Assembly: GCF_037975245.1 (NCBI RefSeq)
Contig: NC_092576.1
Coordinates: forward strand, 21,575,611-21,639,610
Length of the DNA: 64,000 nucleotides
Direction: 5' to 3'
Origin: Apostichopus japonicus
Lineage: Eukaryota > Echinodermata > Holothuroidea > Aspidochirotida > Stichopodidae
The notes beneath the pieces were generated by a model. That model saw nothing but the letters and a program-made list of their open reading frames with translations. It ran no database searches and had not been told where the DNA came from. Made by a program: the position numbers and the translations under genes. Below are positions 1,406-54,003 of this stretch, piece by piece (the first letter of the stretch is position 1; every line of letters starts with the position of its first letter).

Positions 1406-2373
1406 TGTAACGCCCTGGGTGTTCGGGATGCATGTACTCCGATTCGAACACGCCCACGGCTACTCAGAATATGTTTCCCCGAGTTTTAAGAATAATTGAC
1501 TATGCGATATGTTGCCCATTCACTCAGCATTCCACTTACTTTTGTTCTATTTTGCAAGTCTTTCTCGCTCTCCCCGTCGTCTGCCATCACCAGCATTCCA
1601 GGCATTACCTCTTCTATCTCCTGTTAAGCGTTTATCTATTTTACTATAGCTTGCTCTCTATACCTTGTTTAATTAAGACGGTGTTGCTTGTTATGTTTAT
1701 TTGTGTTTTGGAAGACTTGGTTTATTTCGTTGATGTTCGGGCAGAGAACTGGAGACCAGCAGTGAGCAGCACGGCTATTGCAGTTTAGTATTATTTTAAA
1801 GGTAAGGTTGTTTTATTTATTTTAGAGAGCGGGTCCAGGAGTGAGGGCTGACTACGGGCGCCATTTCCTATTGTATTTTATAACTGACAATTTCCCGTCC
1901 TGGTTGGCTTCGTTGCATGTAATTTAAACAGGTGGTAAGGTAAAATTAGGGTTCTCTCAGAGGTATTGTAATAGCTAATCTAGGCACATTGAGCAGTATT
2001 TGTCCAGCCTGTCGTTGGCGCCCCGTGTTGGGTATTCACTCTCGTAATTCTTAAGAGCCGTGCTGCCCACGCCCTGGTACGTAGTTTATTAGTTATTTAG
2101 TTCAATTGAATTTTTGCTCGTTCATGTTTGAGTACGGCAGAAAGACACTGCCTTGTTTTTGTCAAGTGTATGTTTTCAAGTGGATTAATCAAATCGGTGA
2201 ATGAGACCCACCCAGTTCTCGTAAACTATATTCTTCCCTATATTTGTGTATTGGTTTAATAAGCCCTGCTGGCATTATTCTTCGCCTCCCCCTTTCCCCT
2301 TCCCTGACATCAGTTGGCCTCAAGCTGCCTGATAACCCACGCTGCCGCTCTGCCTGGGTACAGGGGCGTTACA
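1406..2373. mobile_element. Solo LTR, 968 bp, with 4-bp target duplication
   Basis: The segment starts TGTAACGCCC and ends GGGCGTTACA, a perfect 10-bp inverted terminal pair of the TG...CA type used by LTR retrotransposons. It is flanked by the direct repeat ATAC at 1402-1405 and 2374-2377. No gag or pol follows on either side, so this looks like a solo LTR left by LTR-LTR recombination. It holds a donor-like TAAAG/GTAAGG at 1801/1802. A TGGCGCC word at 2016, resembling a primer-binding site, is oddly placed inside the LTR. Superfamily and orientation are not decidable here. A truncated, inverted copy lies at 53137-54003. The 118-codon frame at 1432-1788 has no recognisable domain and is probably chance. 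Confidence 0.8.
1799..1807 (+). promoter_or_regulatory. Splice-donor-like site in LTR
   Basis: AAG/GTAAGG, close to the eukaryotic 5' splice consensus, with the exon-intron boundary after 1801. The same site is preserved in inverted form in the right arm (CCTTACCTT at 53697-53705). It points toward the array of acceptor-like sites starting at 4740. That an LTR transcript splices from here into the array is only inference. Confidence 0.3.
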
Positions 2374-2469
2374 ATACGGAATAACTTATATATGGGAAGT
2401 TGTAATCAATTATTCGGTGTAAAGTTTTTGTCACACACGGCGCCCCATAGTATTGACATCAGTAGTAAT

Positions 2470-2632
2470 ACGTGACAATTTCGATGTCAACTTTTACGTG
2501 TCATTTTTTGTACGTGTCAATTTACATGTCAATTTTTAAATGTCAAGTTAGATGTCAAATTTAGATGTCAATTTTTAGATGTCAATTTAGATGTCAAATT
2601 TAGATGTCAATTTTTACGTGACAATTTAGATG
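2470..2632 (+). repeat. Short tandem repeat, GATGTCAATTT-type
   Basis: About a dozen degenerate copies of a unit near TTTAGATGTCAA, with variants TACGTGTCAA and TACGTGACAA. It is 163 bp here and 124 bp in the right-arm counterpart (52917-53040), so copy number changed after the arms separated. Confidence 0.8.
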
Positions 2633-3169
2633 AATACACATGAATTGAGTACATGTCAAATTAGTAATAATACATTTCAAGTTTGTAATTCATGCCACTG
2701 TGGTTCTTTTGGCGTTCCATATACGACAGATATCAGTCAATCTTCTCTATGGTTGACTGACTTTGATGAAATAACCAAAGAAGAAAACATTTGGCGCCAA
2801 AATTTAGGTTGTGTCAAACTCAGAGCAGCGTGGTTTGCATGAAGACGTTGATGTGCTGACTTTTGGACTGCGTGTGCCGATATAGTGTGAATGTGAGTAA
2901 AATATTCCAATTGAAATATTTATTGGTAGGCCATGCATACGTCAAAGTGATAACTTCAAACCCAAGCGTGGAAATATCTGCTTAGCACTTTCTTAAACTT
3001 ACTTAATGATTAAAAGAAACCTGTTGTTTTTGGTACACGTGTTTCTTCAAGAAATAGTTGTTAACATTTATTTAACGACTCAACAGTGTACTACTATTAA
3101 ATTTCCTTATTGACAAATTCAGTATCCGTACTACGTAAAAAAATCAGGGAGGTGTTTCTGTCTGGATAG
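2633..3169. other. Left-arm spacer with decayed 70-codon frame
   Basis: Low-copy sequence shared with the right arm (52381-52916). A 70-codon frame at 2630-2842 is broken in the right arm by a one-base deletion (GATGAAATAACC here, GATGAATAACC there). I recognise no protein. It is either non-coding or an old exon remnant. Confidence 0.5.
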
Positions 3170-3262
3170 TGTTTACACGGGTCCAAAAATCGGGAACCGG
3201 GTACCCGAGGGCCGTTACCCGTCGAGTATCCGGGTACCCGGGAAAAATTTGTTTACCCTCGT
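3170..3262 (+). repeat. KpnI/SmaI-palindrome-rich block
   Basis: Contains GGGTACCC and ATCCGGGTACCCGGG, with the self-complementary core CCGGGTACCCGG at 3230-3241. It is mirrored at 52304-52372. Similar words recur at 50560-50605 and, less completely, near 4140-4165, which suggests a small dispersed repeat. Function unknown. Confidence 0.5.
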
Positions 3263-3769
3263 GTATCACGATTTTCAAGAAATTACATATTGGATGCTGT
3301 AATAAATGCATTATATTCTCTACTGACAATGTTTTCATGTTCAAATACGTAGGTGTAAGATAAGGAATAAAACCTCCCTCAATAATTTGTATTTGCTTCT
3401 GTTTCTTTCATTAACTTGTTAATAAATTAATTATTTAATTATAATTAGCATTACTACTAACATCGCACTGCCGCCGCTGCTTATGCTAGCTCGTGCACGT
3501 CTATTGGATCAAACCATATAAATATCCAATTTAGCTCTTAAACAGTTTTAAATACTACTACTCTCTATTATGCAGGCCCAAGGTTCGCATTAGCCGCGAG
3601 ATTTCGCGATTCGGGCAATTTGATCGCATTTGGAATAAACGATTAGTAAAAAGCCACTTGCGATTACTACTTTTTAGTTATCCCGTCTATAATCCATAAA
3701 CATCGCGTAAAATTCCTTGTCAGCCTTTCCTTCTTTGAAATAAACGAATGAATAAATAATAATTTCTTC
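3263..3769. other. Left-arm spacer, non-coding
   Basis: AT-rich sequence mirrored in the right arm at about 51786-52303. It includes a CGC- and GCC-rich stretch near 3466-3500 (CGCACTGCCGCCGCTGC). Only short overlapping frames are seen. Confidence 0.5.
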
Positions 3770-4095
3770 CACATGGTAGCCTAACACCACACTAAGTCAA
3801 TGAGAAACTAGCTAAGCCTAACCATCTGTTTATTTGCTGGAGTTGTGACGCAGTTGTAAGACATCCATGGAATACTTTCGTCATTGCTGTTACGTTCGAC
3901 CACATGGTTGCCTAACACCACACTAAGTCAATGGGGGTAGTCTAGCCTAGCCATCCGTTTATTAGCTGAAATTGTGACGCAGTTATAAGATATCTATGGA
4001 AAGCTTTCGTTATTGCTGTTATCTTCGAACACATGGTAGCCTAACAACACACTAAGTCAATGGGAAATCAGCCTAACCATCGGTTTGCAATTTTT
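3770..4095 (+). repeat. 130-bp tandem unit, about 2.5 copies
   Basis: CACATGGTNGCCTAACANCAC starts at 3770, 3901 and 4030, a period of 129-131 bp. Each unit also carries a GTGACGCAGTTNTAAGA word. The right arm holds about nine copies of the same unit (50583-51785), so this block expanded there or contracted here. Confidence 0.85.
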
Positions 4096-4614
4096 TTTAA
4101 ACAATTAAACTTTGCGTATGATTCGGGTAATAAATTAGGAACCGGGTATTATCGCGTCGAGTGGGCCCCAGTCTTCATGCTACTAGTAGTAAACCATTTA
4201 ATCGTACATGCTATATGCCTGCCTTGTTTTCAGCTCCTTGCAGCAGTCGGTTGGGAACGTTAGGCCTAAGGAAGATACCATTTCTCTGGCTAGGATGAGA
4301 TGTAGCCAGCTAGGCTACAACACTTTTAAAAACAAGCAAATGTAAACATGTCTCTTATTCCTATTATTAATGAGCCAGGATTAAATGTGTATGCATGATA
4401 TCCATCTGCACGTACAGCTCGTTATACAAATACTTTTGGCATGGGCAACAAATAGTGCAAAATGTAGCGCTGATGTCAGGCAATATCAGTTGGTGCTTTG
4501 TACACCTTAATGGCTAAGTTTATGAGAAATTATTTGAAGGAACTCTGCCTAAACTTAAAGCCTTTTCTAAATTGCTGTAAATGTAACTTTACACCGATCA
4601 TACCAACCTGCTGG
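4096..4614. other. Spacer leading into the 285-bp array
   Basis: Shared with the right arm, but a block of about 477 bp present there (50106-50582) is missing here at about 4165. The frame at 4498-4743 (81 codons) is kept in both arms with few changes. Its C-terminal half simply reads through the first GT-rich tail of the array, so I do not treat it as a gene. It may be the ancestral upstream part of the amplified exon-like unit. Confidence 0.5.
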
Positions 4615-4622
4615 AGAACAAC

Positions 4623-4628
4623 AATAAA
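4623..4628 (+). terminator. First AATAAA of the array
   Basis: AATAAA in AACAATAAAGGTTGTG, followed within 30 bp by a GT-rich stretch (GTTCCATGTCTGTTTG). This is the arrangement of a eukaryotic polyadenylation signal and downstream element. It precedes the first acceptor-like site at 4740 and marks the start of the repeated module. Confidence 0.35.
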
Positions 4629-4759
4629 GGTTGTGTTCCATGTCTGTTTGTTTCATGCTTGTTTTATGTTTGCTTGTTCGATGTTTTCTTTCTTTAAATT
4701 GTGTCGTACCAAATCCAACAACCTTCTTTTTTTCTTCTTATAATAGGTGTAAGACAAAT

Positions 4760-4810
4760 ATGTCTACTAAAACAACGGTGTTGTTAGTGAAGGACGATGA
4801 CAAAGGTTGA
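4760..4810 (+). other. Micro-ORF of the outermost left unit
   Basis: ATG to TGA, 16 codons, encoding MSTKTTVLLVKDDDKG. It lies 14 bp after an AG acceptor-like site, with A at -3. It differs from the inner consensus at about eight residues, yet length, frame, stop position and the LVKDDD-x-G tail are the same. In the right-arm counterpart the ATG has been lost (ACAAATAAATCT). Translation is unproven. Confidence 0.3.
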
Positions 4811-5104
4811 TTGTGAAGGAAAAAAATAAAGTTGGTGTATATTCCATGTTTGATATTTGTTTGTTCGTTGTTTGTAGTTTTGATTAATGTACTTTTGTTG
4901 ATGTATTTGTTGTTTCATGTATGTTTTTTTATGGGTTTTTTATGATTTTTCTATCTTGTTTGTACGATGTTTGTCTGTTTGACACCAAATCCAAACATCT
5001 CTTTCCTTTTTTCTCGTTTATAGAAGGTGTAAGAAAAAGATGGCTACTGCAACAATGAAACAGTTGGTGAAAGACGATGACCAAGGTTGATTGTGAAGGA
5101 AAAC

Positions 5105-5110
5105 AATAAA
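5105..5110 (+). terminator. Representative AATAAA of the 285-bp unit
   Basis: Stands for the array: AATAAA follows the micro-ORF stop by about 15 bp and is followed by GGTGGTGTATGTTCC and TGTTTGTTTG. By eye the hexamer is intact in 12 of 20 left units and changed to AACAAA or AATGAA in the other 8. On the minus strand of the right array it is intact in nearly all units. Each unit could act as a polyadenylation site. Confidence 0.35.
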
Positions 5111-5626
5111 GGTGGTGTATGTTCCATGTTTGTTTGTTCGTTGTTTGTATTTTTGTTTGATGTACATTTGTTTGATGTACATTTGTTTGATGTACATTTG
5201 TTTGATGTATGTTTCTTTGTTATGATGAATGTTTCTTTGATGTATGTTGACAATGTATGTCACTTTGATACCAAATCCAAACATGATTTCTTTTTCTTGT
5301 TCCTTTAATTTTCTTATTTTATAGAAGGTTTTAGACAAAGATTGCTACTGCAACAATGAAACAGTTGGTGAAAGACGATGACCAAGGTTGATTGTGAAGG
5401 AAAACAATAAAGGTGGTGTTTTTTCCATGTTTGTTTGTTCGTTGTTTGGATTTTTGTTTGATGTATATTTGTTCGATGTATATTTTTTGGATGTTTATTT
5501 GTTTGATGTATGTTTCTTTGTTATGGTGAATGTTTCTTTGATGTATGTTTGTAAAATGTAAGTCTGTTTGATACCAAATCGAAACATGATTTCTTTTTTT
5601 TCTTATTTTATAGGTGTAAGACAAAG

Positions 5627-5677
5627 ATGGCTACTGCAACAGAGAAACAGTTGGTGAAAGACGATGACCAAGGTTGA
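5627..5677 (+). other. Micro-ORF, consensus form
   Basis: Sixteen codons reading MATATEKQLVKDDDQG, then TGA, in context AAAG-ATG-G with A at -3 and G at +4, a strong start context. Other left units vary as MATATMKQ, MTTATKKQ, MASAREEQ and MATAREEQ, always with the same length and stop. One unit (5341) has ATT instead of ATG. The peptide is charged with a DDD cluster and shows no signal peptide. I recognise no family. Confidence 0.3.
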
Positions 5678-7042
5678 TTGTGAAGGAAAACAATAAAGGT
5701 GGTGTATGTTTCATGTTTGTTTGTTCGTTGTTTGTAATTTTGTTTGATGTATATTTGTTTGACGTTTATTTTTTTGAATGTTTATTTCTTATGATGAATG
5801 TTTCTTTGATGTATGTTTGTACAATTTATGTCTGTTTGATACCAAATCGAAACATGTTTTTTTTCTTCTTTTTTCTTTCTTCTTTTCTTTTTCTTTTTCT
5901 TATTTTATAGAAGGTTTTAGACAAAGATGACTACTGCAACAAAGAAACAGTTGGTGAAAGACGATGATCAAGGTTGATTGTGAAGGAAAACAATAAAGGT
6001 GGTGTATGTTCCAAGTTTGTTCGTTTGTTGTTTGTATTTTTGTTTGATGTATATTTGTTTGATGTATATTTTTGGGATGTTTATTTGTTTGATGTATGTT
6101 TCTTTGTTATGATGAATGTATCTTTGATGTATGTTTGTAAAATGTATGTCTGTTTGATACCAAATCGAAACATCATTTCTTTTCTTTTTTTCTTATTTTA
6201 TAGGTGTAAGAAAAACATGACTACTGCAACAGAGAAACAGTTGGCGAAAGACGATGACCAAGGTTGATTGTGAAGGAAAACAACAAAGGTGGTGTATGTT
6301 CCATGTTTGTTTGTTAGTTGTTTGTATTTTTGTTTGATGTATATTTGTTTGATGTATATTCTTTGGATGTTTATTTGTTTGATGTATGTTTGTACAATGT
6401 ATGTCTGTTTGATAGCAAATCAAAACATGATTTCTTTTTTTTCACTTTTCTTATTTTATAGAAGGTGTTAGACAAAGATGGCTTCTGCAAGAGAGGAACA
6501 GTTGGTGAAAGACGATGACCAAGGTTGATTTTGAAGGAAAACAATAAAGGTGGTGTATGATCCATGTTTGTTTGTTTGTTGTTTGTATTTTTGTTTGATG
6601 TATATTTGTTTGATGTATATTTTTTGGATGTTTATTTGTTTGATGTATGTTTGTACAATGTATGTCTGTTTGATACCAAATCAAAACATGATTTCCTTTT
6701 TCACTTTTCTTATTTTATAGAAGGTGTAAGACAAAGATGGCTACTGCAACAATGAAACAGTTGGTGAAAGACGATGACCAAGGTTGATTTTGAAGGAAAA
6801 CAATAAAGGTGGTGTATGTTCCATGTTTGTTCGTTCGTTGTTTGTATTTTTCTTTGATGTATATTTGTTTGATGTATATTTTTGGATGTTTATTTGTTTG
6901 ATGTATGTTTGTACAATGTATGTCTGTTTGATACCAAATCAAAACATGATTTCTTTTTTTCACTTTTCTTATTTTATAGAAGGTGTTAGACAAAGATGGC
7001 TACTGCAACAATGAAACAGTTGGTGAAAGACGATGACCAAGG

Positions 7043-9950
7043 TTGATTTTGAAGGAAAACAATAAAGGTGGTGTATGTTCCATGTTTGTTCGTTCGTTGT
7101 TTGTATTTTTCTTTGATGTATATTTGTTTGATGTATATTTTTTGGATGTTTATTTGTTTGATGTATGTTTCTTTGTTATGGTGAATGTTTCTTTGATGTA
7201 TGTTTGTAAAATGTATGTCTGTTTGATACCAAATCAAAACATGATTTCTTTTTTTCACTTTTCTTATTTTATAGAAGGTGTAAGACAAAGATGGCTACTG
7301 CAACAGAGGAACAGTTGGTGAAAGACGATGACCAAGGTTGATTGTGAAGGAAAACAATAAAGGTGGTGTATGTTCCATGTTGTTTGTTCGTTGTTTGTAT
7401 TTTTCTTTGATGTATATTTGTTTGATGTATATTTTTGGGATGTTTATTTGTTTGATGTATGTTTCTTTGTTATGATGAATGTATCTTTGATGTATGTTTG
7501 TAAAATGTATGTCTGTTTGATACCAAATCGAAACATCATTTCTTTTCTTTTTTTCTTATTTTATAGGTGTCAAAAAACATGACTACTGCAACAGAGAAAC
7601 AGTTGGCGAAAGACGATGACCAAGGTTGATTGTGAAGGAAAACAACAAAGGTGGTGTATGTTCCATGTTTGTTTGTTAGTTGTTTGTATTTTTGTTTGAT
7701 GTATATTTTTTGGATGTTTATTTGTTTGATGTATATTTTTTGGATGTTTATTTGTTTGATGTATGTTTGTAAAATGTATGTCTGTTTGATACCAAATCAA
7801 AACATGATTTCTTTTTTTCACTTTTCTTATTTTATAGAAGGTGTAAGACAAAGATGGCTACTGCAACAGAGGAACAGTTGGTGAAAGACGATGACCAAGG
7901 TTGATTGTGAAGGAAAACAATAAAGGTGGTGTATGTTCCATGTTGTTTGTTCGTTGTTTGTATTTTTCTTTGATGTATATTTGTTTGATGTATATTTTTT
8001 GGATGTTTATTTGTTTGATGTATGTTTCTTTGTTATGATGAATGTATCTTTGATGTATGTTTGTAAAATGTATGTCTGTTTGATACCAAATCGAAACATC
8101 ATTTCTTTTCTTTTTTTCTTATTTTATAGGTGTCAAAAAACATGACTACTGCAACAGAGAAACAGTTGGCGAAAGACGATGACCAAGGTTGATTGTGAAG
8201 GAAAACAACAAAGGTGGTGTATGTTCCATGTTTGTTTGTTAGTTGTTTGTATTTTTGTTTGATGTATATTTTTTGGATGTTTATTTGTTTGATGTATATT
8301 TTTTGGATGTTTATTTGTTTGATGTATGTTTGTAAAATGTATGTCTGTTTGATACCAAATCAAAACATGATTTCTTTTTTTTTTCACTTTTCTTATTTTA
8401 TAGAAGGTGTTAGGACAAAGATGGCTACTGCAAGAGAGGAACAGTTGGTGAAAGACGATGACCAAGGTTGATTTTGAAGGAAAACAACAAAGGTGGTGTC
8501 TGTTCCATGTTTGTTTGTTAGTTGTTTGTATTTTTGTTTGATGTATATTTTTTGGATGTTTATTTGTTTGATGTATATTTTTTGGATGTTTATTTGTTTG
8601 ATGTATGTTTGTAAAATGTATGTCTGTTTGATACCAAATCAAAACATGATTTCTTTTTTTTTCACTTTTCTTATTTTATAGAAGGTGTTAGGACAAAGAT
8701 GGCTACTGCAAGAGAGGAACAGTTGGTGAAAGACGATGACCAAGGTTGATTTTGAAGGAAAACAACAAAGGTGGTGTCTGTTCCATGTTTGTTTGTTAGT
8801 TGTTTGTATTTTTGTTTGATGTATATTTGTTTGATGAATATTTTTTGGATGTTTATTTGTTTGATGTATGTTTGTACAATGTATGTCTGTTTGATACCAA
8901 ATCAAAACATGATTTCTTTTTTTCACTTTTCTTATTTTATAGAAGGTGTAAGACAAAGATGGCTACTGCAACAATGAAACAGTTGGTGAAAGACGATGAC
9001 CAAGGTTGATTTTGAAGGAAAACAATAAAGGTGGTGTATGTTCCATGTTTGTTCGTTCGTTGTTTGTATTTTTCTTTGATGTATATTTGTTTGATGTATA
9101 TTTTTTGGATGTTTATTTGTTTGATGTATGTTTCTTTGTTATGGTGAATGTTTCTTTGATGTATGTTTGTAAAATGTATGTCTGTTTGATACCAAATCAA
9201 AACATGATTTCTTTTTTTCACTTTTCTTATTTTATAGAAGGTGTAAGACAAAGATGGCTACTGCAACAGAGGAACAGTTGGTGAAAGACGATGACCAAGG
9301 TTGATTGTGAAGGAAAACAATAAAGGTGGTGTATGTTCCATGTTGTTTGTTCGTTGTTTGTATTTTTCTTTGATGTATATTTGTTTGATGTATATTTTTG
9401 GGATGTTTATTTGTTTGATGTATGTTTCTTTGTTATGATGAATGTATCTTTGATGTATGTTTGTAAAATGTATGTCTGTTTGATACCAAATCGAAACATC
9501 ATTTCTTTTCTTTTTTTCTTATTTTATAGGTGTCAAAAAACATGACTACTGCAACAGAGAAACAGTTGGCGAAAGACGATGACCAAGGTTGATTGTGAAG
9601 GAAAACAACAAAGGTGGTGTATGTTCCATGTTTGTTTGTTAGTTGTTTGTATTTTTGTTTGATGTATATTTTTTGGATGTTTATTTGTTTGATGTATATT
9701 TTTTGGATGTTTATTTGTTTGATGTATGTTTGTAAAATGTATGTCTGTTTGATACCAAATCAAAACATGATTTCTTTTTTTTTTCACTTTTCTTATTTTA
9801 TAGAAGGTGTTAGGACAAAGATGGCTACTGCAAGAGAGGAACAGTTGGTGAAAGACGATGACCAAGGTTGATTTTGAAGGAAAACAACAAAGGTGGTGTC
9901 TGTTCCATGTTTGTTTGTTAGTTGTTTGTATTTTTGTTTGATGTATGTTT
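7043..9950 (+). repeat. Higher-order repeat of 1963 bp in the left 285-bp array
   Basis: The block at 7043-7321 recurs without visible change at 9006-9284, 7370-7582 at 9333-9545 and 7651-7851 at 9614-9814, all offset by 1963 bp (about seven units). Inside it a 563-bp two-unit step repeats (7370 to 7933). This shows recent multi-unit duplication, probably by unequal exchange. Confidence 0.85.
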
Positions 9951-12032
9951 GTACAATGTATGTCTGTTTGATACCAAATCAAAACATGATTTCTTTTTTT
10001 CACTTTTCTTATTTTATAGAAGGTGTAAGACAAAGATGGCTACTGCAACAGAGAAACAGTTGGTGAAAGACGATGACCAAGGTTGATTTTGAAGGAAAAC
10101 AATGAAGGTGGTGTATGATCCATGTTTGTTTGTTCGTTGTTTGTATTTTTGTTTGATGTATATTTGTTTGATGTATATTTTTGGGATGTTTATTTGTTTG
10201 ATGTATGTTTCTTTGTTATTGTGAATGTTTCTTTGATGTATCTTTGTAAAATGTATGTCTGTTTGATACCAAATCGAAACAATATTTAGATGTACACACA
10301 TTAAGCCAACAATGCCCTCACACTAAGCCGATGCTGCTGACATACACGAAGTCAACCCTGCTGACACACACTAAGCCAACGCTGCTGACACACACTAAGC
10401 CAACGCCTGCAATACACTAAACAAACGTCTGCCGACACACACTAAACCAACGCTTGTGAAACAAACTAAGCCAACGCTGCTAACACACTAAACCAACGCT
10501 GCTGACACAAACTAAGCCAACGCTGCTGACACACTAAGGCAACCCTGAACACACAAACTAAGCCAAACGCTGCGTACAAACACTAAGCCAACGCATGTGA
10601 CACACAAAGCAAACACTGCTGACACACACTAAGGCAACACTGCTGACACACACAAAGCCAACACAGCACACAAACACTACGCCAACGCTGCTGACACTCA
10701 CTGTTTACTGTGGTAAAACAACGCTGCTGAAACAAAATAAGCACACACACACTAAGCTCAACGCTGCACACTTAACCAACGCCTGCCGACACACATTAAG
10801 CCAACGCTGCTGGCACACACTAAGCCAACGCTGCTGACACACTAAGCCAACGCTGCTGACACACTAAGCCAAACACTGCACACAAACACTAAGCCAATGC
10901 TGCACACACTGATACCGCTGCTGACACACACACAAAGCCAACGCTGCTGACACACACTAAGCCAACGCTGCCAACAAACACTAAGCCAACGCTGCTGACA
11001 CACACTAAATTAAACACTGCTTACAAACAGTAAGCCAACCCTGCACACACACACTAAGCCAACGCTGCACACAAACACTTAGTCAACGCTGCTGACACAC
11101 TAAGCCAACACTGCCCACAAACACTAAGCCAACACACATACACACACTTAGCCAAACGCTGCACTCACACACTAAGCTCAACGCTGCACACTTAACCAAC
11201 GCCTGCCGACACACACAACGCTGCTGACACACATTAAACCAACGCTGCTGACACACACAAAGCCAACGCTGCTGACACACACTAAGCCAACACTGCACAC
11301 ACCAAAAAGGAAACAATGCTGACACACACTAAGACAATGCTGCTGACACACACTAACCCAACTTAAACACACTTAGCCAACGCTGCTGACACACACTAAG
11401 CCAATGCTGCTGACACACACTTAGCCAACGCTAACTGACACACACTAAGCCAACGCTGCTGACACACACACTAAGACAATGCTGCGGACACATACTAAGC
11501 CAACGCTGCTTATACACACTAAGCCAACGCTGCTGACACACAGTAAATTAAACACTGCTTACAAACAGTAAGCCAACCCTGCGCACACACACACTAAGCC
11601 AATGCTGCGGACACATACTAAGCCAACGCTGCTTACACACACTAAGCCAACGCTGCTGACACACACTAAACCAACGCTGCTGACACACTTAGCCAACGCT
11701 GCTGACACACTAAGCCAAACACTGCACACAAACACTAAGCCAATGCTGCACACACTGACACCGCTGCTGCCACACACTAAGCCAACACTGCCTACAAACA
11801 CTAAGCCAACACACATTCACACACTAAGGTAAACGCTGAACTCACACACCAAGCTCAACGCTGCACACTTAACCAACGCCTGCCGACACACATTAAGCCA
11901 ACGCTGCTGGCACACACTAAGCCAACGCTGCTGACACACTTAGCCAACGCTGCTGACACACTAAGCCAAACACTGCACACAAACACTAACCCAATGCTGC
12001 ACACACTGATACCGCTGCTGACACACACTAAG

Positions 12033-21904: not shown

Positions 21905-21965
21905 GCTGCTGATACACCTTCAGCTAAGGTGTACACACAGAAAGCTTACACCTTCCTCACACTAT
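21905..21965. other. Non-satellite island near the palindrome centre
   Basis: Breaks the 24-bp register. It contains an 8-bp inverted repeat TACACCTT/AAGGTGTA with a 5-base loop (21913-21933), then AAAGCTTACACCTTCCTC. The word CTTACACCTTC (21945-21955) equals the inverted start of the 285-bp unit (GAAGGTGTAAG). Eleven bases could match by chance. Confidence 0.45.
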
Positions 21966-41702: not shown

Positions 41703-44700
41703 ATGAAACATACACCACCTTTATTGTTTTCCTTCAAAATCAACCTTGGTCATCTTCTTTCACCAACTGTTTCTCTGTTGCAGAAGTCATGTTTTTCTTA
41801 CACCTATAAAATAAGAAAAAAAAAGAAATGGTGTTTCTTTTTGGTATCAAACAGACATACATTTTACAAACATACATCAAAGAAACATTCATCAGAACAA
41901 AGAAACATACATCAAACAAATAAACATCCAAAAATATATACATCAAACAAATATACATCAAACAAAAATACAAACAACGAACAAAAAAACATGGAACATA
42001 CACCCCCTTTATTGTTTTCCTTCACAATCAACCTTGATCATCGTCTTTCACCAACTGTTTCTCTGTTGCAGTAGTCATGTTTTTCTTACACCTATAAAAT
42101 AAGAAAAACAAAAGAAATGGTGTTTCTTTTTGGTATCAAACAGACATACATTTTACAAACATACATCAAAGAAACATTCACCATAACAAAGAAACATACA
42201 TCAAACAAATAAACATCAAAAAAATATACATCAAACAAATATACCTCAAACAAAAATACAAACAACGAACAAACAAACATGGACCATACACCACCTTTAT
42301 TGTTTTCCTTCACAATCAACCTTGGTCATCTTCTTTCACCAACTGTTTCTCTGTTGCAGTAGCCATCTTTGTCTTACACCTTCTATAAAGTAAGAAAAGT
42401 GAAAAAAAAAAGAAATCATGTTTTGATTTGGTATCAAACAGACATACATTGTACAAACATACATCAAAGAAACATTTATCATAACAAAGAAACATACATC
42501 AAACAAATAAACATCCAAAAAATATACATCATACAAATATACATCAAACAAAAATACAAACAACGAACAAAAAAACATGGAACATGCACCACCTTCATTG
42601 TTTTCCTTCACAATCAACCTTGGTCATCGTCTTTCACCAACTGTTTCTCTGTTGCAGTAGCCATTTTTGTCTTACACCTTCTATAAAGTAAGAAAAGTGA
42701 AAAAAAAAAGAAATCATGTTTTGACTTGGTATCAAACAGACATACATTGTACAAACATACATCAAAGAAACATTCATCATAACAAAGAAACATACATCAA
42801 ACAAATAAACATCCAAAAAATATACATCATACAAATATACATCAAACAAAAATACAAATAACAAACAAACAAACATGGAACATACACCACCTTTATTGTT
42901 TTCCTTCACAATCAACCTTGGTCATCGTCTTTCACCAACTGTTTCTCTGTTGCAGTAGTCATGTTTTTCTTACACCTATAAAATAAGAAAAAAAAGAAAT
43001 GGTGTTTCTTTTTGGTATCAAACAGACATACATTTTACAAACATACATCAAAGAAACATTCATCATAACAAAGAAACATACATCAAACAAATAAACATCC
43101 AAAAAATATACATCAAACAAATATACATCAAACAAAAATACAAACAACGAACAAAAAAACATGAAACATACACCACCTTTATTGTTTTCCTTCAAAATCA
43201 ACCTTGGTCATCGTCTTTCACCAACTGTTTCTCTGTTGCAGTAGTCATGTTTTTCTTACACCTATGAAATAAGAAAAAAAAAGAAATGGTGTTTCATTTT
43301 GGTATTAAACAGACATACATTTTACAAACATACATCAAAGAAACATTCACCATAACAAAGAAACATACATCAAACAAAAAAACATCCAAAAAATATACAT
43401 CAAACAAAAATACAAACAACGAACAAAAAAACATGAAACATACACCACCTTTATTGTTTTCCTTCAAAATCAACCTTGGTCATCGTCTTTCACCAACTGT
43501 TTCTCTGTTGCAGTAGTCATGTTTTTCTTACACCTATGAAATAAGAAAAAAAAAGAAATGGTGTTTCATTTTGGTATTAAACAGACATACATTTTACAAA
43601 CATACATCAAAGAAACATTCACCATAACAAAGAAACATACATCAAACAAATAAACATCCAAAAAATATACATCAAACAAAAATACAAACAACGAACAAAA
43701 AAACATGAAACATACACCACCTTTATTGTTTTCCTTCAAAATCAACCTTGGTCATCTTCTTTCACCAACTGTTTCTCTGTTGCAGAAGTCATGTTTTTCT
43801 TACACCTATAAAATAAGAAAAAAAAAGAAATGGTGTTTCTTTTTGGTATCAAACAGACATACATTTTACAAACATACATCAAAGAAACATTCATCATAAC
43901 AAATAAACATCCAAAAAATATACATCAAACAAATATACATCAAACAAAAATACAAACAACGAACAAAAAAACATGAAACATACACCACCTTTATTGTTTT
44001 CCTTCAAAATCAACCTTGGTCATCTTCTTTCACCAACTGTTTCTCTGTTGCAGAAGTCATGTTTTTCTTACACCTATAAAATAAGAAAAAAAAAAGAAAT
44101 GGTGTTTCTTTTTGGTATCAAACAGACATACATTTTACAAACATACATCAAAGAAACATTCATCATAACAAAGAAACATACATCAAACAAATAAACATCC
44201 AAAAAATATACATCAAACAAATATACATCAAACAAAAATACAAACAACGAACAAAAAAACATGAAACATACACCACCTTTATTGTTTTCCTTCACAATCA
44301 ACCTTGGTCATCTTCTTTCACCAACTGTTTCTCTGTTGCAGAAGTCATGTTTTTCTTACACCTATAAAATAAGAAAAAAAAAGAAATGGTGTTTCTTTTT
44401 GGTATCAAACAGACATACATTTTACAAACATACATCAAAGAAACATTCATCATAACAAAGAAACATACATCAAACAAATATACATCAAACAAAAATACAA
44501 ACAACGAACAAAAAAACATGAAACATACACCACCTTTATTGTTTTCCTTCAAAATCAACCTTGGTCATCTTCTTTCACCAACTGTTTCTCTGTTGCAGAA
44601 GTCATGTTTTTCTTACACCTATAAAATAAGAAAAAAAAAAGAAATGGTGTTTCTTTTTGGTATCAAACAGACATACATTTTACAAACATACATCAAAGAA

Positions 44701-45177
44701 ACATTCATCATAACAAAGAAACATACATCAAACAAATAAACATCCAAAAAATATACATCAAACAAATATACATCAAACAAAAATACAAACAACGAACAAA
44801 AAAACATGAAACATACACCACCTTTATTGTTTTCCTTCAAAATCAACCTTGGTCATCTTCTTTCACCAACTGTTTCTCTGTTGCAGAAGTCATGTTTTTC
44901 TTACACCTATAAAATAAGAAAAAAAAAGAAATGGTGTTTCTTTTTGGTATCAAACAGACATACATTTTACAAACATACATCAAAGAAACATTCATCAGAA
45001 CAAAGAAACATACATCAAACAAATAAACATCCAAAAATATATACATCAAACAAATATACATCAAACAAAAATACAAACAACGAACAAAAAAACATGGAAC
45101 ATACACCCCCTTTATTGTTTTCCTTCACAATCAACCTTGATCATCGTCTTTCACCAACTGTTTCTCTGTTGCAGTAG
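41703..45177 (-). repeat. 3103-bp higher-order repeat in the right 285-bp array
   Basis: The 372-bp string at 41703-42074 recurs at 44806-45177, and 41740-42003 at 44843-45106, both at an offset of 3103 bp (about eleven units). Confidence 0.8.
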
Positions 45178-46904
45178 CCATCTTTGTCTTACACCTTCTA
45201 TAAAGTAAGAAAAGTGAAAAAAAAAAAGAAATCATGTTTTGATTTGGTATCAAACAGACATACATTGTACAAACATACATCAAAGAAACATTCATCATAA
45301 CAAAGAAACATACATCAAACAAATAAACATCCAAAAAATATACATCATACAAATATACATCAAACAAAAATACAAACAACAAACGAACAAACTTGGAACA
45401 TACACCACCTTTATTGTTTTCCTTCACAATCACCCTTGGTCATCGTCTTTCACCAACTGTTTCTCTGTTGCAGTAGTCATGTTTTTCTTACACCTATAAA
45501 ATAAGAAAAACAAAAGAAATGGTGTTTCTTTTTGGTATCAAACAGACATACATTTTACAAACATACATCAAAGAAACATTCACCATAACAAAGAAACATA
45601 CATCAAACAAATAAACATCAAAAAAATATACATCAAACAAATATACCTCAAACAAAAATACAAACAACGAACAAACAAACATGGACCATACACCACCTTT
45701 ATTGTTTTCCTTCACAATCAACCTTGGTCATCTTCTTTCACCAACTGTTTCTCTGTTGCAGTAGCCATCTTTGTCTTACACCTTCTATAAAGTAAGAAAA
45801 GTGAAAAAAAAAAGAAATCATGTTTTGATTTGGTATCAAACAGACATACATTGTACAAACATACATCAAAGAAACATTTATCATAACAAAGAAACATACA
45901 TCAAACAAATAAACATCCAAAAAATATACATCATACAAATATACATCAAACAAAAATACAAACAACGAACAAAAAAACATGGAACATGCACCACCTTTAT
46001 TGTTTTCCTTCACAATCAACCTTGGTCATCGTCTTTCACCAACTGTTTCTCTGTTGCAGTAGCCATCTTTGTCTTACACCTTCTATAAAGTAAGAAAAGT
46101 GAAAAAAAAAAAGAAATCATGTTTTGATTTGGTATCAAACAGACATACATTGTACAAACATACATCAAAGAAACATTCATCATAACAAAGAAACATACAT
46201 CAAACAAATAAACATCCAAAAAATATACATCATACAAATATACATCAAACAAAAATACAAACAACAAACGAACAAACTTGGAACATACACCACCTTTATT
46301 GTTTTCCTTCACAATCACCCTTGGTCATCGTCTTTCACCAACTGTTTCTCTGTTGCAGTAGTCATGTTTTTCTTACACCTATAAAATAAGAAAAACAAAA
46401 GAAATGGTGTTTCTTTTTGGTATCAAACAGACATACATTTTACAAACATACATCAAAGAAACATTCACCATAACAAAGAAACATACATCAAACAAATAAA
46501 CATCAAAAAAATATACATCAAACAAATATACCTCAAACAAAAATACAAACAACGAACAAACAAACATGGACCATACACCACCTTTATTGTTTTCCTTCAC
46601 AATCAACCTTGGTCATCTTCTTTCACCAACTGTTTCTCTGTTGCAGTAGCCATCTTTGTCTTACACCTTCTATAAAGTAAGAAAAGTGAAAAAAAAAAGA
46701 AATCATGTTTTGATTTGGTATCAAACAGACATACATTGTACAAACATACATCAAAGAAACATTTATCATAACAAAGAAACATACATCAAACAAATAAACA
46801 TCCAAAAAATATACATCATACAAATATACATCAAACAAAAATACAAACAACGAACAAAAAAACATGGAACATGCACCACCTTTATTGTTTTCCTTCACAA
46901 TCAA
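45131..46904 (-). repeat. 885-bp three-unit repeat in the right 285-bp array
   Basis: Strings at 45131-45433, 45494-45721 and 45738-46019 recur at 46016-46318, 46379-46606 and 46623-46904, all offset by 885 bp, without visible difference. Confidence 0.85.
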
Positions 46905-48648
46905 CCTTGGTCATCGTCTTTCACCAACTGTTTCTCTGTTGCAGTAGCCATCTTTGTCTTACACCTTCTATAAAGTAAGAAAAGTGAAAAAAAAAAGAAA
47001 TCATGTTTTGACTTGGTATCAAACAGACATACATTGTACAAACATACATCAAAGAAACATTCATCATAACAAAGAAACATACATCAAACAAATAAACATC
47101 CAAAAATATATACATCAAACAAATATACATCAAACAAAAATACAAACAACGAACAAAAAAACATGGAACATACACCCACTTTATTGTTTTCCTTCACAAT
47201 CAACCTTGATCATCGTCTTTCACCAACTGTTTCTCTGTTGCAGTAGCCATCTTTGTCTTACACCTTCTATAAAGTAAGAAAAGTGAAAAAAAAAAAGAAA
47301 TCATGTTTTGATTTGGTATCAAACAGACATACATTGTACAAACATACATCAAAGAAACATTTATCATAACAAAGAAACATACATCAAACAAATAAACATT
47401 CAAAAAATATACATCATACAAATATACATCAAACAAAAATACAAACAACGAACAAAAAAACATGGAACATGCACCACCTTTATTGTTTTCCTTCACAATC
47501 AACCTTGGTCATCGTCTTTCACCAACTGTTTCTCTGTTGCAGTAGTCATGTTTTTCTTACACCTATTAAATAAGAAAAAAAAGAAATGGTGTTTCTTTTT
47601 GGTATCAAACAGACATACATTTTACAAACATACATCAAAGAAACATTCACCATAACAAAGAAACATACATCAAACAAATAAACATCAAAAAAATATACAT
47701 CAAAGAAATATACCTCAAACAAAAATACAAACAACGAACAAACAAACATGGAACATACACCACCTTTATTGTTTTCCTTCACAATCAACCTTGGTCATCG
47801 TCTTTCACCAACTGTTTCTCTGTTGCAGTAGCCATCTTTGTCTTACACCTTCTATAAAGTAAGAAAAGTGAAAAAAAAAAGGAATCATGTTTTGATTTGG
47901 TATCAAACAGACATACATTGTACAAACATACATCAAAGAAACATTCATCATAACAAAGAAACATACATCAAACAAATAAACATCCCAAAAATATACATCA
48001 AACAAAAATACATCAAACAAAAATACAAACAACGAACAAACAAACATGGAACATACACCACCTTTATTGTTTTCCTTCAAAATCAACCTTGGTCATCTTC
48101 TTTCACCAACTGTTTCTCTGTTGCGGTAGCCATCTTTGTCTTACACCTTCTATAAAGTAAGAAAAGTGAAAAAAGAAAGAAATCGTGTTTCTTTTTGGTA
48201 TCAAACAGACATACATTGTACAAACATACATCAAAGAAACATTCCTCATAACAAAGAAACATATATCAAACAAATAAACATCCCAAAAATATACATCAAA
48301 CAAAAATACAAACAACGAACAAACAAACATGAAACATACACCACCTTTATTGTTTTCCTTCACAATCAACCTTGGTCATCATCTTTCACCAACTGTTTCT
48401 CTGTTGCAGTAGCCATCTTTGTCTTACACCTTCTATAAAATAAGAAAAGTGAAAAAAGAAAGAAATCGTGTTTCTTTTTGGTATCAAACAGACATACATT
48501 GTACAAACATACATCAAAGAAACATTCCTCATAACAAAGAAACATATATCAAACAAATAAACATCCCAAAAATATACATCAAACAAAAATACAAACAACG
48601 AACAAACAAACATGAAACATACACCACCTTTATTGTTTTCCTTCACAA

Positions 48649-48699
48649 TCAACCTTGGTCACCGTCTTTCACCAACTGTTTCTTTGTTGCAGTTGCCAT
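48649..48699 (-). other. Micro-ORF in a near-edge right unit
   Basis: Sixteen codons on the minus strand reading MATATKKQLVKDGDQG, then TGA. One of the three aspartates is replaced by glycine; the frame and stop are kept. It sits after CTATAAAATAAG (inverse of the TTTATAG acceptor-like end). Confidence 0.3.
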
Positions 48700-48857
48700 C
48701 TTTGTCTTACACCTATAAAATAAGAAAAAAAAAGAAATCATGTTTCGATTTGGTATCAAACAGACATACATTTTACAAACATACATCAAAGAAACATTCA
48801 CCATAACAAAGAAACATACATCAAACAAATAAACATCCAAAAAATATACATCAAACA

Positions 48858-49090
48858 AATATCATGTTTCGATTTGGTATCAAACAGACATACATTTTAC
48901 AAACATACATCAAAGAAACATTCATCATAACAAAGAAACATACATCAAACAAATAAACATCCAAAAAATATACATCAAACAAATATCATGTTTCGATTTG
49001 GTATCAAACAGACATACATTTTACAAACATACATCAAAGAAACATTCATCATAACAAAGAAACATACATCAAACAAATAAACATCCAAAA
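48858..49090 (-). repeat. Two truncated 285-bp units
   Basis: A 133-bp segment from ATCATGTTTCGATTTGG to CATCAAACAAAT is repeated at about 48862 and 48985. It lacks the acceptor-like site, micro-ORF and AATAAA, so it is a slippage product of the GT-rich tail only. Confidence 0.75.
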
Positions 49091-49183
49091 AATATACATC
49101 AAACAAATATACATCAAACAAAAATACAAACAACGAACAAACAAATATGGAACATACACCACCTTTATTGTTTTCCTTCAAAT

Positions 49184-49234
49184 TCAACCTTTGTCATCGT
49201 CTTTCACCGACTGTTTCTTTGTTGTAGTAGTCAT
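49184..49234 (-). other. Micro-ORF in a diverged right edge unit
   Basis: Sixteen codons on the minus strand reading MTTTTKKQSVKDDDKG, then TGA. Despite several replacements relative to the inner consensus, the length, stop and KDDD tail are unchanged. The next unit outward (49471-49520) keeps the frame but has lost its ATG. Confidence 0.3.
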
Positions 49235-49651
49235 CTTTTTCTTACACCTTCTATAAACGAGAAAAAAGGAAAGAGATGTTTGGATTTGGTGTCAAACAGA
49301 CAAACATCGTTCAAACAAGATCGAAAAATCATAAAAAACACATAAAAAAACATACATGAAACAAAAAATACATCAACAAAAGTACATTAATCAAAACTAC
49401 AAACAACGAACAAACAAATATCAAACATGGAATATACACCAACTTTATTGTTTTCCTTCACAATCAACCTTTGTCATCGTCCTTCACTAACAACACCGTT
49501 GTTTTAGTAGATTTATTTGTCTTACACCTATTATAAGAAGAAAAAAAGAAGGTTGTTGGATTTGGTATGACACAATTTAAAAAAAGAAAACATCGAACAA
49601 GCAAACATAAAACAAACATGAAACAAACAGACATGGAACACAACCTTTATT

Positions 49652-50105
49652 GTTGTTCTCCAGCAGGTTGGTATGATCGGTGTAAAGTTACATTTACAGC
49701 AATTTAGAAAAGGCTTTAAGTTTAGGCGGAGTTCCTTCAAATAATTTCTCATAAACTTAGCCATTAAGGTGTACAAAGCACCAACTGATATTGCCTGACA
49801 TCAGCGCTACATTTTGCACTATTTGTTGCCCATGCCAAAAGTATTTGTATAACGAGCTGTACGTGCAGATGGAAATCATGCATACACATTTAATCCTGGC
49901 TCATTAATAATAGGAATAAGAGACATGTTTACATTTGCTTGTTTTTAAAAGTGTTGTAGCCTAGCTGGCTACATCTCATCCTAGCCAGAGAAATGGTATC
50001 TTCCTTAGGCCTAACGTTCCCAACCGACTTCTGCAAGGAGCTGAAAACAACGCAGGCATATAGCATGTACGATTAAATGGTTTACTACTAGTAGCATGAA
50101 GACTG
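49652..50105. other. Right-arm spacer outside the array
   Basis: Inverted match to about 4190-4620, with roughly 97% identity by eye. Contains the mirrored 81-codon frame (49531-49776, minus). No gene recognised. Confidence 0.6.
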
Positions 50106-50582
50106 CTTGCCATGGAGGGGTCATTTTGGAGAGTAACTAACTGTATTTTTTCGTGAAATTGGCTCTTGCTGCAGGTTGTCATGGTGAAATCGTGTATTTC
50201 TTAGGGGTGTCCGAACTTGGCAATACTGATCATACTAGTTTTCATTCTACGATTAGGCCTAACGAACTGTATGTAATGTTGCTGCTGTATAAAGTCTGAC
50301 ATTAAGTCGAAGTTCCAAGTTGACATGATAAATATCGACCCCTCCCAATAACAAAGTTGGTGTGATTGCCCTCAGAAATGTTTCAAAGGATAATTTCTTA
50401 TCAATATGGGGAGTTTAAGCTACAGCAGTGCAAAGTTTTGGACGGTATTTATGGTTAAATTAAGTGTAGAAAAAACATATCCCAGCATTTGTGCAAAGCA
50501 TGCGTTACAAACTGTTACCTCCAATGTGTCCCGGATGTTGAAACACTTTGCACGGGTTATCCGGGTACCCGGGTACCCGCCT
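50106..50582. other. Block of about 477 bp present only in the right arm
   Basis: Homology with the left arm stops after GTAGCATGAAGAC (50105) and resumes at GACGCGATACTACCCGG. The left arm reads straight across with GTCGAGTGGGCCCC, a word found in inverted form at 50736-50750 of the right arm. A deletion in the left arm, between similar GACGCGATA words, is the simplest reading. No coding sequence is seen. Confidence 0.6.
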
Positions 50583-51785
50583 GACGCGATACTACCCGGT
50601 TCCTATTTTATTACCCGAATCCTAAGCAACGTGTGATTTAAAAAAAAAAGCAAACCGACGGTTAGGCAGATTTCCCATTGACTTAGTGTGGTGTTAGGCT
50701 ACAATGTAGTCGAAGATAACAGCAATAACGAAGGGGCCCGCTCGACGCGATAATACCCGAATCATACGCAAAGTGTGATTGTTTAAAAAAAAATTGCAAA
50801 CCGATGGTTAGGCTGATTTCCCATTGACTTAGTGTGTTGTTAGGCTACCATGTGTTCGAAGATAACAGCAATAACGAAAGCTTTCCATAGATATCTTATA
50901 ACTGCGTCACAATTTCAGCTAATAAACAGATGGCTAGGCTAGACTTCCCCTATTGACTTAATGTGGTGTTAGGCAACCATGTGGTCGAACGTAACAGCAA
51001 TGACGAAAGTATTCCATGGATGTCTTACAACTGCGTCACAACTCCAGCAAATAAACAGATGGTTAGGCTTAGCTAGATTTCTTATTGACTTAGTGTGGTG
51101 TTAGGCTACCATGTGGAAAAAATTATTATTTATTCATTAGTCATTATTTATTCATTCACCCGAATCATACGCAAAATGTGATTGTTTAAAAAAAATTGCA
51201 AACCGATGGTTAGGCTGATTTCCCATTGACTTAGTGTGTTGTTAGGCTACCATGTGTTCGAAGATAACAGCAATAACGAAAGCTTTCCATAGATATCTTA
51301 TAACTGCGTCACAATTTCAGCTAATAAACAGATGGCTAGATTGACTTAGTGTGGTGGTAGGCAACCATGTGGTCGAACGTAACAGTAATAACGAAAGTAT
51401 TCCATGGATGTCTTACAACTGCGTCACAACTCCAGCAAATAAACAGATGGTTAGGCTTAGCTAGATTTCTTATTGACTTAGTGTGGTGTTAGGCTACCAT
51501 GTGGAAAAAATTATTATTTATTCAATAATAATAATTATTTAAATATAAATATTTTTTTTTTATATTTATATATAAAAATATTTAATAAACAGATGGCTAG
51601 GCTAGACTTCCCCTATTGACTTAGTGTGGTGTTAGGCAACCATGTGGTCGAACGTAACAGCAATAACGAAAGTATTCCATGGATGTCTTACAACTGCGTC
51701 ACAACTCCAGCAAATAAACAGATGGTTAGGCTTAGCTAGATTTCTCATTGACTTAGTGTGGTGTTAGGCTACCATGTGGAAAAAA
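50583..51785 (-). repeat. 130-bp tandem unit, about 9 copies
   Basis: TTGACTTAGTGTGGTGTTAGG and close variants recur about nine times, with ACCATGTGG-type words at 50848, 50977, 51109, 51250, 51364, 51497, 51640 and 51771. Same unit as 3770-4095. An AT-rich tract (about 51505-51590) interrupts one unit. Confidence 0.85.
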
Positions 51786-52303
51786 CTATTATTTATTCAT
51801 TCGTTTATTTCAAAGAAGGAAAGGCTGACAAGGAATTTTACGCGATGTTTATGGATTATAGACGGGATAACTAAAAAATAGTAATCGCAAGTGGCTTTTT
51901 ACTAATCGTTTATTCCAAATGCGATCAAATTGCCCGAATCGCGCAATCTCGCGGCTAATGCGAACCCTGGGCCTGCATAATAGAGAGAAGTAGTATTTAA
52001 AACTGTTTAAGAGCTAACTTGGATATTTATATGGTTTGATCCAATAGACGTGCACGAGCTAGCATAAGCAGCGGCGGCAGTGCGATGTTAGTAGTAATGC
52101 TAATTATAATTAAATAATTAATTTATTAACAAGTTCATGAAAGAAACAGAAGCAAATACAAATTACTGAGGGAGGTTTTATACCTTATCTTACACCTACG
52201 TATTTGAACATGAAAACATTGTCAGTAGAGAATATAATGCATTTATTACAGCATCCAATATGTAATTTCTTGAAAATCGTGATACACGAGGGTAAACAAA
52301 TTT
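51786..52303. other. Right-arm spacer, non-coding
   Basis: Inverted match to 3263-3769, including the mirrored GCAGCGGCGGCAGTGCG stretch. No gene seen. Confidence 0.6.
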
Positions 52304-52372
52304 TCCCGGGTACCCGGATACCCGACGGGTAACGGCCCTCGGGTACCCGGTTCCCGATTTTTGGACCCGTGT
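52304..52372 (-). repeat. KpnI/SmaI-palindrome-rich block, right copy
   Basis: Mirror of 3170-3262 with CCCGGGTACCCGGATACCCG and GGGTACCCGG. One copy of the motif differs from the left (GACGGGTAACGG against GTCGAGTATCC order). Confidence 0.5.
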
Positions 52373-52916
52373 AAACACTATTGACAGACAGAAACACCTC
52401 CCTGATTTTTTTACGTAGTACGGATACTGAATTTGTCAATAAGGAAATTTAATACTAGTTCACTGTTGAGTCGTTAAATAAATGTTAACAACTATTTCTT
52501 GAAGAAACACGTGTACAAAAAACAACAGGTTTCTTTTAGTCATTAAGTAAGTTTAAGAAAGTGCTAAGCAGATATTTCCACGCTTGGGTTTGAAGTTATC
52601 ACTTTGACGTATACATGGCCTACCAATAAATATTTCAATTGGAATATTTTACTCACATTCACACTATATCGGCACACGCAGTCCAAAAGTCAGCACATCA
52701 ACGTCTTCATGCAAACCACGCTGCTCTGAGTCTGATACAACCTAAATTTTGGCGCCAAATGTTTTCTTCTTTGGTTATTCATCAAAGTCAGTCAACCATA
52801 GAGAAGATTGACTGATATCTGTCGTATATGGAACGCCAAAAGAACCACAGTGGCATGAATTACAAACTTGAAATGTATTATTACTAATTTTGACATGTAC
52901 TCAATTCATGTGTATT
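52373..52916. other. Right-arm spacer with frameshifted frame
   Basis: Inverted match to 2633-3169, about 98% identical over the part aligned by eye. The 70-codon frame of the left copy is shifted here by a missing base near 52780. No coding function supported. Confidence 0.6.
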
Positions 52917-53040
52917 CATCTAAATTGTCACGTAAAAATTGACATCTAAATTTGACATCTAAATTGACATTTAAAAATTGACATCTAAATTGACACGTAC
53001 AAAAAATGACACGTAAAAGTTGACATCTAAATTGTCACGT
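52917..53040 (-). repeat. Short tandem repeat, TTGACATCTAAA-type
   Basis: Mirror of 2470-2632 with fewer copies (124 against 163 bp). Confidence 0.8.
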
Positions 53041-53136
53041 ATTACTACTGATGTTAATACTATGGGGCGCCGTGTGTGACAAAAACTTGACACCGAATAA
53101 TTGATTACAACTTCCCATATATAAGTTATTCCGTAT
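53041..53136. other. Right-arm spacer with mirrored target duplication
   Basis: Inverted match to 2374-2469. It ends in GTAT at 53133-53136, the inverse of the ATAC target duplication beside the left LTR, which shows the LTR was already inserted when the arm was copied. Confidence 0.65.
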
Positions 53137-54003
53137 TGTAACGCCCCTGTACCCCGGCAGAGCGGCAGCGTGGGTTATCAGGCAGCTTGAGGCCAACTGA
53201 TGTCAGGGCAGGGGAAAGGGGGAGGCGAAGAATAATGCTAGCAGGGCTTATTAAACCAATACACAAATATAGGGAAGAATATAGTTTACGAGAACTGGGT
53301 GGGTCTCATTCACCGATTTGATTAATTTACTTGAAAACATACACTTGACAAAAACAAGGCAGTGTCTTTCTGCCGTACTCAAACATGAACGAGCAAAAAA
53401 TTCAATTGAACTAAATAACTACGTACCAGGGCGTGGGCAGCACGACTCTTAAGAATTACGAGAGTGAATACCCAACACGGGGCGCCAACGGCAGACTGGA
53501 CAAATACTGCTCAATGTGCCTAGATTAGCTATTACATTACCTCCTGGGAGAACCCTAATTTTACCTTGCCACCGGTGTATATAACATGCAACGAAGCCAA
53601 CCAGGACGGGAAGTTGTCAGTTATAAAATACAATAGGAAATGGCGCCCGTAGTCAGCCCTCACTCCTGGACCCGCTCCCTAAAATAAATAAAACAACCTT
53701 ACCTTTAAAATAATACTAAACTGCAATAGCCGTGCTGCTCACTGCTGGTCTCCAGTTCTCTGCCCGAACATCAACGAAATAAAGCAAGTCTTCCAAAACA
53801 CAAAAAACATAACAAACAACACCGTCTTAATTAAACAAGGTATAGAGAGCAAGCTATAGTAAAATAGATAAACGCTTAACAGGAGATAAAAGAGCGAATC
53901 CCTGGAATGCTACATGGTGATGGCAGACGACGGGGAGAGCGAGAGAGACTTGCATAATACAACAAAAGTAAGTGGAATGCTGAGTGAATGGGCAACATAT
54001 CGC
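53137..54003. mobile_element. Truncated inverted copy of the LTR
   Basis: Begins TGTAACGCCCC like the inverse end of the left LTR and matches 1504-2373 at about 95% identity by eye. It stops at CATATCGC (54003), so the outer 98 bp of the LTR are missing and I saw no remainder further right. This is the right boundary of the whole inverted duplication. Confidence 0.85.

What the first reader, a model, noticed from the sequence alone, without database searches (positions are those of the whole stretch)
1504..54003. 52.5-kb inverted duplication with layered repeat content
Every block from 1504 inward recurs in mirror order to 54003, with 95-98% identity in hand-aligned unique parts. Palindromes of this size are rare outside sex-chromosome amplicons and giant fold-back elements, and this one has tandem arrays making up most of both arms. 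Sea urchin TU fold-back elements also have long inverted arms built of tandem repeats, but they are far smaller. The object could be a palindromic amplicon or a giant fold-back-like element.
Basis: partly seen in the sequence, partly recalled or inferred. Interest (0 to 1): 0.85.

Follow-up and report, generated by a model that had tools for sequence, protein, structure and literature searches.

The report
Lopsided inverted duplication of tandem arrays
A 52.5-kb stretch of what is probably a sea cucumber chromosome holds the same block twice in opposite directions; it looks like one ordinary inverted duplication whose tandem repeats then changed separately in each half, not a giant transposon.

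Summary
The inverted duplication is present in the assembly. Its arms are unequal: 1504-22079 (20.6 kb) and 22082-54003 (31.9 kb). Non-array parts are 98.0% identical base for base (60 mismatches in 2,967 aligned bases). About 85% of each arm is two tandem arrays, and these are not mirror-identical: the 24-bp arrays match at about 76-94% and carry different long internal repeats.

It is not a fold-back element. Neither outer edge is a terminus: 1504 lies 98 bp inside a solo LTR that is intact on the left, and at 54003/54004 the cut LTR is joined to another dispersed repeat that is itself cut. The 24-bp array and all close copies of the arm sequence that were found lie here.

Best explanation: one interstitial inverted segmental duplication, with a strand switch inside the minisatellite and an outer join with about 1 bp of shared sequence, followed by independent array turnover. 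A false join is less likely: no N within 104 kb, and the flanks do not continue the mirror. But ~15-kb HiFi reads, if the assembly is the published one, cannot anchor the centre in unique sequence on both sides. Interest is modest.

The parts
1504..22079 (+). left arm (20.6 kb)
   Evidence: mirror homology
22082..54003 (-). right arm (31.9 kb), inverted copy
1406..2373 (+). 968-bp solo LTR (TGTAACG...CGTTACA) with ATAC on both sides; the arm boundary 1504 lies 98 bp inside it
   Evidence: a related pair on C9, 6.4 kb apart and 99.8% identical to each other, encloses RVT_1 and RNase H pieces
53137..54003 (-). same LTR in the right arm, lacking its outer 98 bp
54004..54198 (+). cut dispersed repeat joined to the right arm; 6 of 6 fetched relatives continue upstream past this point. 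Followed by copia-like gag (weak) and SH3-like pieces to about 56.1 kb
3167..4169 (+). mobile element, 38 listed genome copies at 94-97%, shared by both arms (right copy rearranged, within about 50.1-52.4 kb)
4259..4602 (+). ~340-bp leader block, also beside related arrays on C10, C15 and C11 (two loci), about 70-73%
4724..10293 (+). array of exon-like units (mostly 257-301 bp), left arm, 20 units found
40557..49550 (-). same array, right arm, 31 units found (one spacing of 534 bp)
10294..22078 (+). 24-bp minisatellite ACACACACTAAGCCAACGCTGCTG, left; long repeats at ~1,987-bp offset
22082..40556 (-). 24-bp minisatellite, right; 4,741-bp higher-order repeat with a 6,916-bp exact repeat (28438-35353 = 33179-40094)
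22070..22090 (.). strand flip, GGCACTAAGTGTG around it
22456..22496 (+). short flip-back to forward orientation

Best explanation
A single-locus inverted segmental duplication. Inferred steps: (1) the ancestral block was solo LTR - 0.8 kb - mobile element - leader block - exon-like array - 24-bp minisatellite; (2) a replication or repair event switched strand inside the minisatellite (fold-back or template switch; by inspection the flip CACTAAGTG is near-palindromic and leaves about 2 bp of shared sequence) and copied back outwards to 98 bp short of the LTR end, where it was joined to a dispersed repeat with about 1 bp of shared sequence; (3) each arm's arrays then expanded and contracted independently. 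The intact LTR with ATAC on both sides makes the left arm the likelier original. Shown: the two copies, the flip, the cut repeats at the right outer edge, the array differences. Inferred: mechanism and order; a later deletion could also have made the right edge. No function is indicated; it behaves as a structural variant.
For: Non-array parts 98.0% identical. Both arms share the solo LTR and the mobile element at matching positions, so these probably predate the duplication. The 39-base minisatellite pattern (up to 3 mismatches) has 101 + 174 matches in the whole genome and the same numbers in this window alone. The best non-self match of 2640-3160 and of 4172-4720 is the right arm (98% and 99%); the next are at most 77% and 72% over more than 150 bp. 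At the right edge the arm's LTR ends at 54003 while its own left copy goes on, and the repeat that follows is cut although 6 of 6 fetched relatives go on upstream. The array edges still match at the exon-like/24-bp boundary for roughly 90 bp. Large inverted duplications with 2-8 bp inverted microhomology at 13 sequenced junctions and a proposed fold-back mechanism are published (PMC3907307, abstract and passages).
Against: Mirror homology inside the 24-bp array is weak. Left blocks at 19.3-21.1 kb best match right 23.4-24.4 kb at similar distances from the flip (87-93%), but over half of all left blocks (21 of 39) best match right 23.3-24.8 kb, 15 of them from non-mirror positions and some as well or better (up to 94%). 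The innermost ~1 kb on each side shows no mirror match above array background, and no unique spacer is seen, unlike the published fold-back cases. No unduplicated allele was seen.
Confidence: 0.75

Rival explanations
1. Assembly artefact: two haplotypes, or two array-bearing contigs, were wrongly joined head to head inside the minisatellite.
For: The arms differ by 2.0%, which could be allelic. If the assembly is that of PMC10344927 (HiFi mean 14.7 kb, hifiasm; passages), a read over the flip cannot reach sequence outside the 24-bp array on both sides (11.8 kb left, 18.5 kb right). The 6,916-bp exact repeat in the right array leaves copy number uncertain.
Against: No N in the window or in 20 kb on each side. 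Haplotype copies should stay inverted-homologous outside the arms. The left 21.5 kb against 30 kb and then 50 kb on the right gave 13 and 45 matches, none touching the 3 kb next to 1504. Two matches near -8.6/63.6 kb do sit at about mirror positions, but they are copies of a dispersed repeat (40 long matches listed, itself included; best other copy 92% on C20; 40 of 3,924 candidates scored) and are only 83-89% alike. A missed-adapter read would give identical arms. A head-to-head join still needs sequence containing the strand switch.
Confidence: 0.15
2. Giant fold-back (TU- or Tetris-like) transposable element with tandem-repeat arms.
For: Long inverted arms made mostly of tandem repeats, as in fold-back elements (PMC4079207, abstract and passages: Tetris TIRs up to 1,735 bp).
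Against: No target duplication around 1504/54003 and no terminal motif; the outer edges lie inside other repeats; no second close copy found; the arms contain ordinary dispersed elements.
Confidence: 0.02
3. Gene-converted palindromic amplicon under selection, as on sex chromosomes.
For: Arm length is of the order used for primate X palindromes (37 kb, 99.953% identity; PMC8981503, passages).
Against: Identity only 98.0% and arrays diverged; no Rfam match in the window; the nine ORFs of 110 aa or more touching the arms lie in the LTR (1) or the exon-like arrays (8) (not put to Pfam, introns not considered). Sex linkage not testable here; sex determination in A. japonicus is reported as XX/XY or polygenic (PMC11757944, passages and reference list).
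Confidence: 0.04

Closest known systems
Inverted duplications formed by fold-back or template switching (e.g. PMC3907307)
   Same: two inverted copies, strand flip with minimal shared sequence
   Different: the published human cases are large rearrangements next to terminal deletions and have a single-copy spacer; here it is interstitial, tens of kb, the flip lies in a minisatellite and no unique spacer is seen
Fold-back elements (sea urchin TU, recalled; Tetris, PMC4079207)
   Same: long inverted arms rich in tandem repeats
   Different: no defined termini, no target duplication, no other copies found
Sex-chromosome palindromes (primate X, PMC8981503; willow W, PMC7023750, passages)
   Same: inverted arms of tens of kb
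   Different: lower arm identity, no recognised genes, strong array divergence

Membership tests
Inverted segmental duplication | two inverted copies of high identity at one locus | tested here: met
Inverted segmental duplication | close copies confined to the locus, flanks not mirrored | tested here: met
   (candidates scored: 40 of 103, 21 of 21)
Inverted segmental duplication | physical presence in DNA (spanning reads) | not testable with these tools
   no reads held
Fold-back formation | single-copy spacer at the flip | tested here: inconclusive
   innermost ~1 kb shows no mirror match, but array turnover could hide or mimic a spacer
Fold-back transposable element | target site duplication at the outer ends | tested here: not met
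   bases outside 1504 and 54003 differ
Fold-back transposable element | same termini at several loci | tested here: not met
   (only top candidates scored)
Gene-converted palindromic amplicon | arm identity above 99% | tested here: not met
   98.0%
Gene-converted palindromic amplicon | sex linkage and expressed genes | not testable with these tools
   no sex or expression data
Haplotype-join or hairpin-read artefact | flanks inverted-homologous, or identical arms | tested here: not met

The most novel reading that the evidence does not exclude
The exon-like array is one member of a dispersed family of loci (here, C10, C15 and two on C11 with a shared leader block; C2 and C20 by array similarity only) made of tandem exon-like units (polypyrimidine tract-AG, short ORF, purine-rich). 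Such arrays may tend to flip strand: the C2 array also ends with a ~480-bp flipped stretch. Here the flip makes the two arrays converge, so one transcript through the centre would fold into long double-stranded RNA, a possible small-RNA source.
Probability: 0.07. Interest if true: 0.6.

Novelty: new member of a known kind. Interest (0 to 1): 0.33.

Why it matters
It is a clear case in which slowly and fast changing sequence were duplicated together: the non-array parts have drifted 2% while the tandem arrays have been rebuilt, so the relative turnover of arrays and ordinary DNA could be measured from one event. It also shows that mirror order alone does not mark a transposon.

Tried and rejected
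Fold-back element: rejected on ends, target duplication and copy number. Right edge as the end of an inserted copia LTR (54005-54198 starts TG and ends CA): I held this after and dropped it, where all six fetched relatives continue upstream; the edge is again a breakpoint inside two repeats. My odds did not change. A larger, older palindrome: the matches at about -8.6/63.6 kb and -13.8/102.6 kb are dispersed repeats (40 long matches listed, itself included; 37 other near-full-length copies listed, 40 of 1,815 candidates scored); the -15.5/58.4 kb match (88%) was not checked for copy number. Coding selection on the short ORF: 49 of 51 units compared (two dropped as too different); 49 keep the stop, 48 the ATG, none has an internal stop; 12 nonsynonymous and 5 synonymous distinct changes against 107 and 28 possible, p = 0.37, so no sign of selection. 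The version of this test used a wrong offset and is void. A search for the species by assembly size found nothing; one search found the paper.

Full report
What is there. The window is G000:C16:21575611-21639610 of a 671.58-Mb, 35-contig assembly. Contig C35 (16,099 bp) reads as COX1 under the echinoderm mitochondrial code. Size, longest chromosome (C16 46.04 vs 46.02 Mb) and contig count fit the Apostichopus japonicus assembly of PMC10344927 (671.60 Mb, 34 scaffolds; abstract and passages). That identification is an inference.

The duplication. Self-comparison gives inverted homology from 1504 to 54003. Non-array parts: 60 mismatches in 2,967 aligned bases (rows 1504-3770 and 4169-4918; the rows 4919-5287, at the array start, hold 23 in 369 and were left out). 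The strand flips at 22079/22082, with a short flip-back at about 22456-22496. Within 10001-41000, at 18 of 24 matches or better, all 327 forward unit positions lie at 10296-22053 and all 522 reverse ones at 22086-40524.

The arrays. The 39-base minisatellite pattern has 101 forward and 174 reverse matches in the genome, the same numbers as in the window; weaker relatives would not be seen. The two 24-bp arrays share their outer edge for roughly 90 bp and show weak mirror homology near the centre, but over half of the left blocks (21 of 39) best match one part of the right array, 23.3-24.8 kb, whatever their own position. Each carries its own long repeats: about 1,987 bp apart on the left, 4,741 bp on the right, the latter with a 6,916-bp exact repeat. 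The exon-like units number 20 and 31.

The edges. The left edge lies 98 bp inside a 968-bp repeat, TGTAACG...CGTTACA, with ATAC on both sides. Its relatives (38 other places listed besides the right arm: 37 at 81-84%, one at 78%; 40 of 212 candidates scored) include two pairs 6.4 kb apart; one pair has 99.8% identical ends around reverse transcriptase and RNase H pieces, so it is an LTR and the copy here is solo. On the right the LTR ends at 54003. What follows, to 54198, has eight partial relatives; the six fetched all continue upstream of the point that corresponds to 54004, five of them with a common sequence for the 39 bases shown. So both repeats are cut at this join, with about 1 bp shared by inspection. 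Copia-like gag (20 bits, below the Pfam cut-off of 27) and SH3-like pieces follow.

Flanks. The left flank 1-1500 has no near-identical long second copy: no match above 83% over more than 200 bp, though a ~115-bp piece recurs at 91-96% in many places (40 of 735 candidates scored). Matches between the left 21.5 kb and the right 30 and 50 kb do not touch the 3 kb next to 1504. Two at about mirror positions are copies of a dispersed repeat.

Uniqueness of the arms. 2640-3160: right arm 98%, next at most 77% over more than 150 bp (40 of 103 candidates scored). 4172-4720: right arm 99%, next 72% over more than 150 bp, with short matches up to 86% (21 of 21 scored). So the arms have old, distant relatives but no other close copy found.

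A family of arrays. Parts of the exon-like unit recur at 68-80% in arrays on C10, C2, C15 and C20 (list cut), and the ~340-bp leader block recurs beside arrays on C10, C15 and two C11 loci, but was not found at C2 or C20. In the slices fetched (25 kb of C10, 20 kb of C2, 10 kb of C15, 7 kb of C20; not the whole C2 and C15 arrays) the longest inverted match is 404 bp. C2 ends with a ~480-bp flipped stretch.

Mechanism and status. The simplest account is one inverted duplication with the switch inside the minisatellite, then separate array evolution. The mechanism is borrowed from published fold-back inverted duplications (PMC3907307, passages) and is inferred, not shown. The main doubt is whether the centre was assembled correctly. 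A literature search with sea cucumber, palindrome, inverted duplication, satellite and minisatellite terms (8 of 50 papers listed) showed no report of this locus in the listed titles and abstracts; nothing wider was searched.

Noticed in passing
4172-10293 and relatives at C10:11273391, C15:8963979, C11:5618264, C11:8844013: Dispersed family of loci: conserved ~340-bp leader block beside tandem exon-like units with splice-acceptor-like tract, short ORF and T-rich spacer.
   Followed up: partly
L009 (C2:7329418-7329898): Related array on C2 ends with a ~480-bp strand-flipped stretch.
   Followed up: partly
28438-40094: 4,741-bp higher-order repeat with 6,916 bp of exact identity: very recent amplification or an assembly loop.
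   Followed up: no
L015 and L016 (C11:5.62 Mb and 8.84 Mb): The leader blocks at two distant C11 loci look identical over the aligned stretch: recent duplication or assembly duplication.
   Followed up: no
50106-50750 and 51150-51582: Extra sequence and a further partial copy of the mobile element seen only in the right arm.
   Followed up: no
C16:37.46-39.27 Mb: Nine places listed match a ~65-85-bp piece of the leader block (around 4447-4524) at 77-85%, as in a clustered family.
   Followed up: no
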